Shown piece after piece: positions 55,109 to 63,365 of a stretch of DNA of 64,000 bases (the stretch's first letter is position 1; each line of letters starts with the position of its first letter). The stretch lies in assembly GCA_000247545.1 (NCBI GenBank), contig CP003316.1, positions 1,769,233 to 1,833,232 of the forward strand, given 5' to 3'. Under the pieces are notes generated by a model, which saw only the letters and a program-made list of their open reading frames with translations, was not told where the DNA came from and made no database searches. Source of the DNA: Pyrobaculum oguniense TE7 (GTDB lineage: Archaea > Thermoproteota > Thermoprotei > Thermoproteales > Thermoproteaceae). The translations under genes and the position numbers were made by a program.

Positions 55109-55830
<722 letters not shown>

Positions 55831-56020
55831 TTAAGATTACCGAAGGGTTAAGGGGAATTGCGGCATTTAATAACGCGTGGGGTATCGCTTGATTCAACAT
55901 CGCACATACGGCGCTTGGAGGGACCGGCGGCTCTTGTCAAAGCCGCCGAATTTCTGTTTCCGGCGACTCAGAAAGGCGGGCGTTGGCTCATTCAAAAACG
56001 CGCGGCAGAGGCGTAGAGGC

Positions 56021-56317
56021 ATGAAGTCGTACATGTCGGCGTGTGGAGAAGTACGTGAAATACCGCTAGACGTGGCAAAGCGTATAATCACCGGCGATTT
56101 GGAGCCGGTCAGGGACATGGTAAGTTGTGTGTCCCCGGTAAAACTGAGAGAAGGGATCTTAGTAATGGATAAGCTAGGCGTTGTACAGCAAGTACTGATT
56201 CACGGAATCGACAAGACAATGAAAGAAGTCGTTGTGGAGGTGTGGGTAGCATTGTATTTTGATGGCGCCGAGAAATTAATAGAGCTGTGCAGATTGGCCC
56301 TCAGCAAGGCTCTCTGA
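56021..56317 (+). CDS. small uncharacterised protein of the right-hand element
   Basis: 98 residues from ATG 56021; the frame opens earlier but TTCAAAAACG is about 27 bp before this ATG. VREIPLDVAKRIITGDLEPVRDM, SPVKLREGILVMDKLGVVQQVLIHGID, EVVVEVWVALYFDGAEKLIEL. Mixed alpha/beta. The 15 bp before the ATG (GGCGTAGAGGC) recur before the gene at 57440. Not recognised. Confidence 0.6.
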   Translation: MKSYMSACGEVREIPLDVAKRIITGDLEPVRDMVSCVSPVKLREGILVMDKLGVVQQVLIHGIDKTMKEVVVEVWVALYFDGAEKLIELCRLALSKAL

Positions 56318-56825: not shown

Positions 56826-56955
56826 CGCCGACCTGACATGTCCGCCTGACAGTTTTTCACGTCACTCAGGCTGTCGGTCAGGATCCTGGGTTCAGCATCC
56901 TGACTCACAGCCTGACTGATGGAAAAAAGGAGTCAGGTTAGTCGGTCAGGCCGGC
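56826..56955. repeat. nested palindrome R1 (CCTGAC/GTCAGG element)
   Basis: About 130 bp. Left arm carries GACCTGACATG, CGCCTGACAG, GTCACTCAGGC; right arm carries AGCCTGACTGA, AGTCAGGTTAG, GGTCAGGCC, so outer units pair with outer, inner with inner. The core 56877-56904 is GTCAGGATCCTGGG then TTCAGCATCCTGAC, an imperfect version of the perfect core in R2 and R3. It lies between convergent genes and encodes the last residues of the minus-strand one. Confidence 0.9.
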
Positions 56956-57315
56956 GGTGGCGTTGGAGGCGCGCCGCCTCGGCTCGTATGTGGCTTTGAA
57001 ACACTCTGTCGCCACGTTAAGTGTGGAGCCCCATCTGACGTAGAACGTCTTGACGTTTTCTCCCTTTTTCAGCTCCAGCGCCGTGTCTCCTATAAACACA
57101 AACATATCGCTTGGCGCCGTGATCCTAACCGCCACCGCACAGCCGCCTTCATCGCATTGCTCCTCCGCAAACGCGACTTGGGGACATCCGGGCGGAGGAG
57201 CCGCATAGATAGATGCCAGGATGAGAAGCCAAATGGCAGCGCCGCTCAATGCGGCGATTACAAAAGGGATGGAGACCTCGCTGTCCCGCTTTATCTTCAC
57301 TTTCACCACTTTCAT
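56938..57315 (-). CDS. small secreted/anchored protein, single TM plus exposed Cys domain
   Basis: 125 residues from ATG 57315 (TTTAATTG about 25 bp upstream). Basic start MKVVKVKIKR, TM near 14-36 (IPFVIAALSGAAIWLLILASIYA), then exposed beta domain with Cys pairs (GCPQ, EEQCDEGGC, ATECF), ITAPSDMFVFIGDTALELKKG and VRWGSTLNV. A decayed paralogue lies at 58390-58660. Its stop is inside R1. Confidence 0.65.
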   Translation of the reverse strand: MKVVKVKIKRDSEVSIPFVIAALSGAAIWLLILASIYAAPPPGCPQVAFAEEQCDEGGCAVAVRITAPSDMFVFIGDTALELKKGENVKTFYVRWGSTLNVATECFKATYEPRRRASNATAGLTD

Positions 57316-57439
57316 AGGCAACGCCAGCGCGGACACAATTAAAGCTTAGTGAAATTCGGCGCCGCTCAGCGCCCCGAGGAGCCGGTGGCTTCAGCCGCTT
57401 CCGACGTTATTCATTATCACGCGGTATAGGCGTAGAGGC

Positions 57440-57718
57440 ATGAAGGAAGGAAACTTATGTGAAAAACTGAAAGAGGCACGTCAGATACTAAGTAATTTGT
57501 CGAATGACCCAGTGAAGTTGGAACGACAATTGATTAGGCTACGCGAGTTGTTTTTCGCCTTATGGGTTCAGCACCAGACAGAAGAGCTTGGCAAATTGCA
57601 CGACTTAGCGGCTACGGCGTTGTCGCTGACAGGTTCGCGGCGAGGATGGCACCTCCTACAGGGGTACGTCTCTAACATGCACGTTATCCTCAGCACGCTA
57701 ATGGCCCAATGCCAATAA
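57440..57718 (+). CDS. small helical protein (family A of the element)
   Basis: 92 residues, all-helical: NLCEKLKEARQILSNLSNDP, LIRLRELFFALWVQHQTEELGKLHDLAATAL, then WHLLQGYVSNMHVILSTLMAQC. The last part and the C-terminal Cys resemble the proteins at 59088 and 61795. Preceded by GGCGTAGAGGC, as is the gene at 56021. Confidence 0.6.
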   Translation: MKEGNLCEKLKEARQILSNLSNDPVKLERQLIRLRELFFALWVQHQTEELGKLHDLAATALSLTGSRRGWHLLQGYVSNMHVILSTLMAQCQ

Positions 57719-57862: not shown

Positions 57863-58120
57863 GTGAAGCTGAGGGGCCTCGCCTTTGAGGTCTACGCCCT
57901 CGCCTTCGTCCGGCCCATTACAATCCACTATGCGGCGAGGAGGCTGGGGAGGTCTAAGGCGGGGGTGTGGAAGGCCGTGCACAAGCTGGAGCAAATGGGC
58001 CTCCTCAAGCGCGTCCGGATAGGCAACGGCGTGTACTGGGTCGCCCACGAAATTGCGCTTAACTACCGGTGCAGGAGGCCGGGCGTAGACGCCCCGGCGT
58101 CGCTCTGCACGCCGGCCTGA
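57863..58120 (+). CDS. winged-helix DNA-binding protein of the element
   Basis: 85 residues: LAFEVYALAFVRPITIHYAARRLGRSKAGVWKAVHKLEQMGLLKRV then wing VRIGNGVYWVAHE. GTG 57863 with AGTTTTTATACTCC about 25 bp upstream. Its last codons and TGA lie in the left edge of palindrome R2. It is the only clear DNA-binding protein of the element and so a candidate for binding the palindromes or the twin operators; this is inference. Confidence 0.78.
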   Translation: MKLRGLAFEVYALAFVRPITIHYAARRLGRSKAGVWKAVHKLEQMGLLKRVRIGNGVYWVAHEIALNYRCRRPGVDAPASLCTPA

Positions 58121-58236
58121 CAGATTAGCCTGACAGCTCTTTCTCGTCAGTCAGGCTGTGAGTCAGGATCCTGGGCCCAGGATCCTGAAAATCCGCCTGA
58201 CCGGTGAAAAAATCCGTCAGGCGGACGTGTCAGGTA
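58108..58236. repeat. nested palindrome R2 (CCTGAC/GTCAGG element)
   Basis: About 129 bp. Units in order: GCCTGACA, GCCTGACA, CGTCAGTCAGGC, a perfect 26-bp core at 58163-58188 (TCAGGATCCTGGG plus its reverse complement), CGCCTGACC, CGTCAGGCGG, GTGTCAGG. Same layout as R1 and R3 with different spacer bases between units, so pairing, not spacer sequence, is conserved. Confidence 0.92.
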
Positions 58237-58841: not shown

Positions 58842-59087
58842 AAAAAGAGGAATGTTATCCTTCTCCTCATTCTTTTTGATGCCTGTTTCAAACATCTTGC
58901 GGCTGAACTCTTCCGGTTAGTGCCTTTCGATTTTTCGGGGAAGGACTGAGAGAAATTCTCTGTATTGAACCCGGGCACCGCTTGGCGAGGCGGCTGGGCT
59001 CAAAAACGCATAGGCATTAGAAGACCATGCACAGGAAGGCCCTCCGGAAGCCGGGGATTCAACGGCTTGGACAACAACGTTAGTCCG

Positions 59088-59273
59088 GTGAGGTGCGAAA
59101 AGTTGCAAAAAGTCTACGAGCTTGTCTTGTCCGTTGCCTCAAGAACCGCCCCGCTCGGAAGCGAGCTCACCAGGCTCGGCGACCCGGCCCTAAGCTCCGC
59201 CTACGGGGAGCTGGAATACGCCCTCCTCGGCATGAAGCTGAGGCTGAGCCAGCTGCTGGAGAAATGCCGCTGA
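59088..59273 (+). CDS. small helical protein (family A of the element)
   Basis: 61 residues from GTG 59088: MRCEKLQKVYELVLSVASRT, LGSELTRLGDPALSSAYGELEYALLGMKLRLSQLLEKCR. Clear paralogue of 61795-61983 (RLSEVNDPVISALAEELTYI, LRLRHRLEQIEQEC), including the MRC start. No TATA box at the usual place. Function unknown; perhaps an oligomeric structural or regulatory protein. Confidence 0.6.
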   Translation: MRCEKLQKVYELVLSVASRTAPLGSELTRLGDPALSSAYGELEYALLGMKLRLSQLLEKCR

Positions 59274-60930: not shown

Positions 60931-60964
60931 GATACATAAAACACATGTTTTTCATGTAAACATG
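60931..60964 (+). promoter_or_regulatory. promoter with operator-like element, copy 1
   Basis: TACATAAA TATA box (60933-60940), then ACACATGTTTTTCATGTAAA up to the ATG at 60962. CATGTTT and AAACATG form an inverted repeat across the transcription start. A near-copy precedes the gene at 61231. Confidence 0.7.
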
Positions 60965-61144
60965 GAAAAAGTCGTCGGACACATACTGAAAGTCCGCAAC
61001 GAGCTGTACATATACGTGCCCAAAGGCACGAGGTTGTACGACGTCATCATGGAGGCGGTGAAAAACAACGGAGGCTCCGCGCGCGGCCTCCGCGTCGAGA
61101 TTGAAGTTGTGTCCGCCGCCGTGCGCCGCGTCAAGCTAGAGTAG
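60962..61144 (+). CDS. 60-residue protein of the element
   Basis: MEKVVGHILKVRNELYIYVP, KGTRLYDVIMEAVKNNGGSA, RGLRVEIEVVSAAVRRVKLE: beta-alpha-beta-like and basic. ATG 60962 is 26 bp after the TATA box. Shares its operator with the 61231 gene and probably its regulation. Could be a small DNA-binding protein; not recognised. Confidence 0.6.
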   Translation: MEKVVGHILKVRNELYIYVPKGTRLYDVIMEAVKNNGGSARGLRVEIEVVSAAVRRVKLE

Positions 61145-61200
61145 CCGCCAAAGCCCACAGCCTTTTTTCTCCTCGCCGCGAGGATTTCCAATAAGCGAAA

Positions 61201-61233
61201 GATTTATAAACACATGTTTTCAATGTACACATG
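61201..61233 (+). promoter_or_regulatory. promoter with operator-like element, copy 2
   Basis: GATTTATAAA TATA box (61201-61210) followed by CACATGTTTTCAATGTACAC and ATG 61231. Matches copy 1 nearly base for base, with identical spacing from TATA box to start codon. Confidence 0.7.
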
Positions 61234-61656
61234 TCTCAGAACCAAACCCTGCTGAAAATCGAGGGGCTATGCTACAACGTGGATCCCTCGGGCTACTACT
61301 TCGGACACCGGTTGTGTGAGTTCAGCGAGTTGCCGAGGAAGACAATAATACTGCTGGATAGCATCATGCCCGGCTGTAAACACATAGTGGCGTACACTAA
61401 GAGAATAAGCGCGGAGGCGGCAAAGGCGTTGCTGCAGCGCGCCGGCGAGGTCATATCGTACATCGGCTTCAACTCGTTCACCAAAGCGCTGGAGGAGCTC
61501 GCAGGCAAGAAGTTCATTTATGCCAGCGGCACGTATTGCCCCAACGACGGAGACGTGGCGATCGCGGCATTGATGAAGCCGTGGCAGACAATGCAGCAGC
61601 AAGTGAGCATAGACGAGGTGGAATTTTACCTCATACACTACGTTGCGCCAGTTTAA
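61231..61656 (+). CDS. uncharacterised protein of the element
   Basis: 141 residues: LLKIEGLCYNVDPSGYYFGH, ELPRKTIILLDSIMPGCKHIVAYTK, AKALLQRAGEVISYIGFNSF, YASGTYCPNDGDVAIAALMKP, IDEVEFYLIHYVAPV. Soluble alpha/beta with four Cys. Co-regulated with the 60962 gene by the shared operator. Followed by CTTCTTTTTTTC. Function unknown. Confidence 0.65.
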   Translation: MSQNQTLLKIEGLCYNVDPSGYYFGHRLCEFSELPRKTIILLDSIMPGCKHIVAYTKRISAEAAKALLQRAGEVISYIGFNSFTKALEELAGKKFIYASGTYCPNDGDVAIAALMKPWQTMQQQVSIDEVEFYLIHYVAPV

Positions 61657-61794: not shown

Positions 61795-61983
61795 ATGAGG
61801 TGCCAAACAGAGGAGATACGCGAGCTGATCCGCGCTCTCGGCTACTTCGCGACACGGCTTTCTGAGGTAAATGACCCAGTAATATCGGCACTGGCCGAGG
61901 AGCTGACATACATTGTTCTTAGATTGCGCCACCGGTTGGAACAAATTGAGCAGGAATGCCAAGCAATTCGCCCAATGCCCTAG
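61795..61983 (+). CDS. small helical protein (family A of the element)
   Basis: 62 residues: MRCQTEEIRELIRALGYFAT, RLSEVNDPVISALAEELTYI, LRLRHRLEQIEQECQAIRP. Paralogue of 59088-59273. The TAG is followed at once by CCCCTTTTTTCC. Confidence 0.62.
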   Translation: MRCQTEEIRELIRALGYFATRLSEVNDPVISALAEELTYIVLRLRHRLEQIEQECQAIRPMP

Positions 61984-63220: not shown

Positions 63221-63351
63221 CCGCCGACCTGACACGTCCGCCTGACGGTTAAAAACGTCAGTCAGGCAGATTCTCAGGATCCTGGGCCCAGGATCCTGAC
63301 AGACAATAAGACTGACGAAATTTAGTTGTCAGGCTAGTCGGTCAGGTCGAC
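63221..63351. repeat. nested palindrome R3 (CCTGAC/GTCAGG element)
   Basis: About 131 bp. GACCTGACACG, CGCCTGACGG, ACGTCAGTCAGGC, perfect 26-bp core at 63274-63299 identical to that of R2, then GACTGACG, TTGTCAGGC, GGTCAGGTCGACG. Unlike R1 and R2 it sits between divergent genes, just before the PaRep2b-like ORF. Confidence 0.92.
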
Positions 63352-63365
63352 GCTCTAAAGCAGAA

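What the first reader, a model, noticed from the sequence alone, without database searches (positions are those of the whole stretch)
60931..61233. Twin promoters with the same operator-like sequence
Upstream of the 60962 and 61231 genes a TATA box is followed by ACACATGTTTTTCATGTAAACATG-like sequence (copy 2 CACATGTTTTCAATGTACACATG-like), at matched distance to the start codon. The CATGTTT...AAACATG dyad overlaps the predicted transcription start, where an archaeal repressor would act. Two adjacent genes therefore share a private regulator.
Basis: seen in the sequence. Interest (0 to 1): 0.68.

Follow-up and report, generated by a model that had tools for sequence, protein, structure and literature searches.

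The report
Twin start-site operators in Pyrobaculum
Two unrelated neighbouring genes in a strain-specific island of a hot-spring archaeon begin with nearly the same 26-base promoter-to-start-codon sequence, found nowhere else in its genome; one gene is a divergent relative of a viral anti-CRISPR enzyme that lacks the catalytic histidine, so the pair is probably switched together, but the switch protein is unknown.

Summary
Two 26-bp copies (60939-60964 and 61208-61233) match at 23 of 26 positions. Both run from the TATA box into the ATG, so both promoters look leaderless. Of all start-proximal pairs compared in a 105-kb surrounding stretch, this is the most similar one upstream of non-homologous genes. 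It is private to these two sites: within 3 mismatches there is no other copy in the genome, none in ten other Pyrobaculum genomes, and no exact copy in the viral or prokaryote collections. The dyad is real but weak (7/10 and 8/10 pairs), and copy 1 has a competing axis. A shared repressor is therefore plausible but unproven.

The window is the Pyrobaculum oguniense TE7 chromosome, inside a 1,825-1,870 kb island reported as absent from P. arsenaticum. The downstream gene encodes a divergent DUF1874 (AcrIII-1/Crn2) protein: hhalign score 41 against at most 19 in 300 shuffles. It has Phe at the catalytic His position. The upstream gene encodes a 60-aa ORFan. The arrangement resembles the shared regulatory sequences that mark anti-defence genes in archaeal viruses. 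A second start-region pair (56021/57440) leaves promoter copying by recombination as a serious rival.

The parts
60933..60940 (+). TATA-like box of gene A (TACATAAA, starts at -29 from ATG)
   Evidence: sequence
60939..60964 (+). Copy 1 of the shared block, ending in the ATG of gene A; arms CATGTTT (60944-60950) and AAACATG (60958-60964)
60962..61144 (+). Gene A, 60-aa ORFan; predicted beta-beta-alpha-beta-beta (pLDDT 72.5); no homologue in 60 related genomes
   Evidence: (coding score 0.48 bit/codon, best of six frames)
61203..61210 (+). TATA box of gene B (TTTATAAA, starts at -28)
61208..61233 (+). Copy 2 of the shared block, ending in the ATG of gene B
61231..61656 (+). Gene B, 141 aa; residues about 39-138 are a divergent DUF1874 / STIV_B116-like (AcrIII-1/Crn2) domain with Phe80 in place of the catalytic His
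57863..58120 (+).

Best explanation
The two copies are one cis-regulatory element repeated at two leaderless promoters. It lies between the TATA box and the first transcribed base/start codon, so a DNA-binding protein (most likely a small dimeric RHH or wHTH repressor from the host or from a lost or trans-acting element) bound there would stop RNA polymerase loading at both promoters at once. Gene A (60-aa ORFan) and gene B (His-less DUF1874 protein) would then be co-regulated as a small unit, in the manner of anti-defence genes of archaeal viruses, each of which carries its own copy of an element-specific regulatory sequence. Gene B most likely binds, rather than cleaves, a cyclic oligoadenylate made by the host's type III CRISPR, or has lost that role. 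Shown: the twin block, its privacy, its position, and the homology of gene B. Inferred: the TSS, the repressor, co-regulation, and the role of gene B.
For: 17/20 same-register identity, P about 5e-6, ending exactly at both start codons; the most similar start-proximal pair of non-homologous genes in the systematic comparison of 105 kb; no other copy in own genome or ten congeners, none in viral contigs or genome contigs by exact pattern. TATA boxes at -29/-28 fit the commonest box position in this stretch, -27. Similarity stops near the TATA box on one side and at the ATG on the other. Gene B: hhalign 91% and score 41.5 against a six-member DUF1874 profile, versus at most 18.8 for 300 shuffles and 16.3 for 12 other proteins of the region. 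The host has a type III-B Cas10 with an intact GGDD motif. Precedents: small archaeal virus genes incl. acrs share one virus-specific promoter sequence (PMC11065993); the archaeal virus repressor F55 binds sites overlapping the TSS (PMC5569661).
Against: Only two copies and no orthologues, so no conservation test is possible. The dyad axis is ambiguous. No regulator gene is preceded by the motif. acrIII-1 genes rarely carry such motifs in viruses (prevalence 0.13, PMC11065993). Another pair (56021/57440) shows start-region sharing without this operator. The island is not shown to be viral.
Confidence: 0.5

Rival explanations
1. Promoter capture: a short recombination or gene-conversion event copied one gene's TATA-to-ATG stretch in front of the other. 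The sequence is shared by descent and needs no dedicated regulator.
For: Two tandem copies 269 bp apart; a second pair of non-homologous ORFs in the island shares a different start-proximal block with 18 consecutive identical bases through ATGAAG (56021/57440); the island is rich in repeats and repeated families.
Against: The block boundaries coincide with functional landmarks (TATA box, ATG). The few differences spare the outer CATGTTT and ACATG, though copy 2 does change one base of the right arm.
Confidence: 0.3
2. Both copies are simply a strong leaderless core promoter (TATA box plus an A/T-rich initially melted region), convergent or selected for strength, without a repressor.
For: A/T-rich sequence between TATA and start suits melting; strong promoters mark archaeal viral early genes (PMC11065993).
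Against: No other promoter of the 105-kb stretch resembles it and the genome has no third copy; a generic strong promoter should recur.
Confidence: 0.14
3. Chance similarity of two A/T-rich upstream regions.
For: A genome with about 2,800 genes has millions of promoter pairs.
Against: P about 5e-6 for this adjacent pair in the same register; only non-homologous pair above 16/23 in the systematic comparison of 103 putative genes.
Confidence: 0.03

Closest known systems
Shared early-gene regulatory sequences of archaeal viral anti-defence genes (Bhoobalan-Chitty et al. 2024, PMC11065993)
   Same: Single small genes, mostly without homologues, each preceded by an element-specific near-identical sequence around a strong TATA promoter; some such sequences contain inverted repeats; one gene here is an Acr-family relative.
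   Different: Only two copies here; sequence identity lies downstream of TATA to the ATG rather than over BRE/TATA; chromosomal PaREP2 island, not a recognised virus; no Aca gene with the motif found; DUF1874 genes rarely have such motifs.
SSV1 F55 and SIRV1 SvtR operators (RHH repressors; PMC5569661)
   Same: Repressor sites at several target promoters of one element; F55 sites overlap the TSS and BRE.
   Different: Published consensus sequences (ATAGATAGAGT tandem repeats; ATnnTTCAAnAnnnnnAAAATG) do not match by eye; no cognate RHH protein identified here.
AcrIII-1 / Crn2 ring nucleases (DUF1874, Pfam STIV_B116-like)
   Same: Gene B aligns over the domain core, with SYIGF..FTKAL matching S.IGH..TA..L.
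   Different: Below Pfam cut-off; catalytic His replaced by Phe80; the conserved Asn-Arg pair of the family is missing; 38-residue N-terminal extension.

Membership tests
Archaeal-virus type shared regulatory sequence (ADG motif) | Single genes in one element share a regulatory sequence around a promoter | tested here: met
   Two genes, 23/26 identity; private to the locus
Archaeal-virus type shared regulatory sequence (ADG motif) | Conserved BRE+TATA strong promoter as part of the shared block | tested here: inconclusive
   Both have TATA-like boxes, but copy 1 TATA is degenerate (TACATAAA) and similarity upstream of it is low
Archaeal-virus type shared regulatory sequence (ADG motif) | Lies in a viral or plasmid genome | tested here: inconclusive
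   Strain-specific PaREP2 island (PMC3558965 Table 5); no viral hallmark among the proteins searched
Archaeal-virus type shared regulatory sequence (ADG motif) | Aca-like regulator preceded by the same sequence | tested here: not met
   No third copy within 7 mismatches of 26 in 105 kb, none within 9 on the extrachromosomal element
DUF1874 ring nuclease (AcrIII-1/Crn2) | Homologous domain | tested here: met
   hhalign 91%, score 41.5 vs decoys at most 18.8; Pfam E 0.0026 and 0.0011 for the domain, below gathering score
DUF1874 ring nuclease (AcrIII-1/Crn2) | Active-site histidine (His47 of SIRV1 gp29) needed for cA4 cleavage | tested here: not met
   Phe80 at that column; the H47A mutant of SIRV1 gp29 is inactive but binds cA4 (PMC7213978)
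Repressor operator | Bound by a protein that lowers transcription | not testable with these tools
   Needs gel shift or footprinting
Leaderless promoter | Transcription starts at or within a few bases of the ATG | tested here: inconclusive
   Consistent TATA spacing only; no 5'-end data

The most novel reading that the evidence does not exclude
A catalytically dead DUF1874 protein and a companion ORFan form a co-repressed pair that sequesters the type III CRISPR messenger cA4 instead of degrading it, switched on together through a private start-site operator in a chromosomal island of Pyrobaculum.
Probability: 0.1. Interest if true: 0.7.

Novelty: new member of a known kind. Interest (0 to 1): 0.4.

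Why it matters
Shared promoter sequence has been used, with experimental validation, to find anti-defence genes in archaeal viruses. Here the same logic, in a host island of the poorly explored Thermoproteales, links a DUF1874 protein without its catalytic histidine to an unknown 60-aa protein. If they are co-regulated, both become concrete candidates for CRISPR-related function, and the existence of a messenger-binding, non-cleaving DUF1874 protein becomes testable.

Tried and rejected
Sequence homologues of gene A or B in 60 related genomes, viral contigs and genome contigs (B only) and phages: none significant. AlphaFold2 of gene B alone gave pLDDT 44.7, so it was not used for fold searches. 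Gene A fold search: no PDB or BFVD match below E 0.06; the best viral match is a Pyrobaculum spherical virus protein (Q6ZYG1, TM 0.58), a lead only. An alignment of DUF1874 proteins was too diverse for the search for related loci. Structured-RNA explanation: no Rfam family in 55-64 kb. The idea that the nearby winged-helix (57863) or RHH (L009:13198) gene carries the same site was rejected: no copy. The first promoter-pair comparison missed this pair, probably because spurious long antisense ORFs were preferred; it was redone with codon scores, which in turn does not consider the internal start 56021, so the second pair is cited.

Full report
WHERE IT IS. The window is chromosome 1,769,233-1,833,232 of a 2,436,033 + 16,887 bp genome, the sizes published for Pyrobaculum oguniense TE7 (PMC3558965). 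The site falls inside the 1,825-1,870 kb region that the paper lists as present in P. oguniense, absent in P. arsenaticum and associated with paREP2.

THE OBSERVATION. Two 26-bp blocks, 60939-60964 and 61208-61233, match at 23 of 26 positions and each ends with the start codon of an ORF. TATA-like boxes begin at -29 and -28; in surrounding genes the commonest best TATA position is -27 (6 of 44), as expected if many Pyrobaculum transcripts are leaderless (general knowledge, not tested by transcript data). Outside the block the flanks and the gene bodies are not similar (protein Smith-Waterman score 25, noise level).

IS IT MORE THAN CHANCE? In-register identity of 17/20 was reached once in 200,000 dinucleotide shuffles. 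Among 103 putative genes in 105 kb, all other pairs with at least 17/23 matches belong to paralogues; the best other non-homologous pair has 16/23. With up to 3 mismatches the pattern hits only these two places in the genome and none in ten other Pyrobaculum genomes; exact patterns gave nothing in viral contigs and genome contigs. The dyad is weaker evidence: 7/10 and 8/10 pairs on the CATGTTT/AAACATG axis, with a competing, better axis in copy 1 that runs into the TATA box.

WHAT THE GENES ARE. Gene A (60 aa) looks coding by codon usage (0.48 bit per codon in frame), has no relatives found, and is predicted as beta-beta-alpha-beta-beta at pLDDT 72.5. Gene B (141 aa) matches Pfam STIV_B116-like below the cut-off (E 0.0026; 0.0011 for the domain alone). 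A six-member profile of DUF1874 proteins taken from related archaea matches it at 91% probability and score 41.5, while 300 shuffles reach at most 18.8, the reversed sequence 14.0 and 12 other proteins of the region at most 16.3. I take gene B as a divergent member of the DUF1874 family. Its residue at the catalytic histidine is Phe80, and the conserved Asn-Arg of the family is absent. The H47A mutant of SIRV1 gp29 is inactive yet binds cA4 with a KD of about 25 nM (PMC7213978), so a binding role is conceivable but not shown. Another His-less group (Arg in that area) exists in a different family of the order (L018-L021). The host has a type III-B Cas10 (Cmr2) at 991.8 kb with GGDD.

HOW IT PROBABLY WORKS. 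A protein bound across the block would cover the promoter-melting region, the start site and the first codon of both genes and so block initiation. The archaeal viral repressor F55 binds sites overlapping the TSS and BRE (PMC5569661). The nearest conceptual match is the finding that single small genes of archaeal viruses, including acrs and aca8, share one virus-specific regulatory sequence, used to predict 354 anti-defence genes (PMC11065993). Differences: two copies only, a chromosomal island without viral hallmarks among the proteins searched, and no regulator gene carrying the sequence. In that study acrIII-1 genes rarely had such motifs (0.13). I put the shared-operator explanation at 0.5.

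RIVALS. Promoter capture by recombination is favoured by a second start-region pair in the island: 56021 and 57440 share 18 consecutive bases through ATGAAG in front of unrelated proteins. A strong leaderless core promoter without repressor is possible but should recur elsewhere. Chance is unlikely.

LIMITS. TSSs are inferred. The structure of gene B could not be modelled with confidence.

Noticed in passing
window 56831-56956, 58110-58235, 63227-63352: About 126-nt imperfect palindromic repeats (core CAGGATCCTGGGCCCAGGATCCTG, ends CGCCGACCTGAC..GTCAGGTCG-like); nine of ten genome copies lie at 1,826,063-1,868,872, i.e. span the strain-specific island, in both orientations; none in ten other Pyrobaculum genomes. 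Could be a MITE or a site-specific recombination or maintenance site of the island.
   Followed up: partly
window 55990-56026 and 57409-57445: Second pair of shared start-proximal sequences (84% over 37 nt, 18 identical bases through ATGAAG) before non-homologous ORFs at 56021 and 57440.
   Followed up: partly
window 59016-59273 and 61795-61983: Two small predicted helical proteins of the island look paralogous (Smith-Waterman score 71).
   Followed up: no
L018-L021 (four genomes of the same order): A clade of chromosomal DUF1874 proteins with SYVERQDTAQAL where the family has S.IGH..TA, i.e. also without the catalytic His.
   Followed up: no
L010:6272-14464: Tandem series of ankyrin-repeat-like genes next to the island's RadB-like gene (named by eye, not by a family search).
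   Followed up: no
window 55450-55788 (-): PIN-domain protein (VapC-like, Pfam E 2.5e-6) at the island edge.
   Followed up: no
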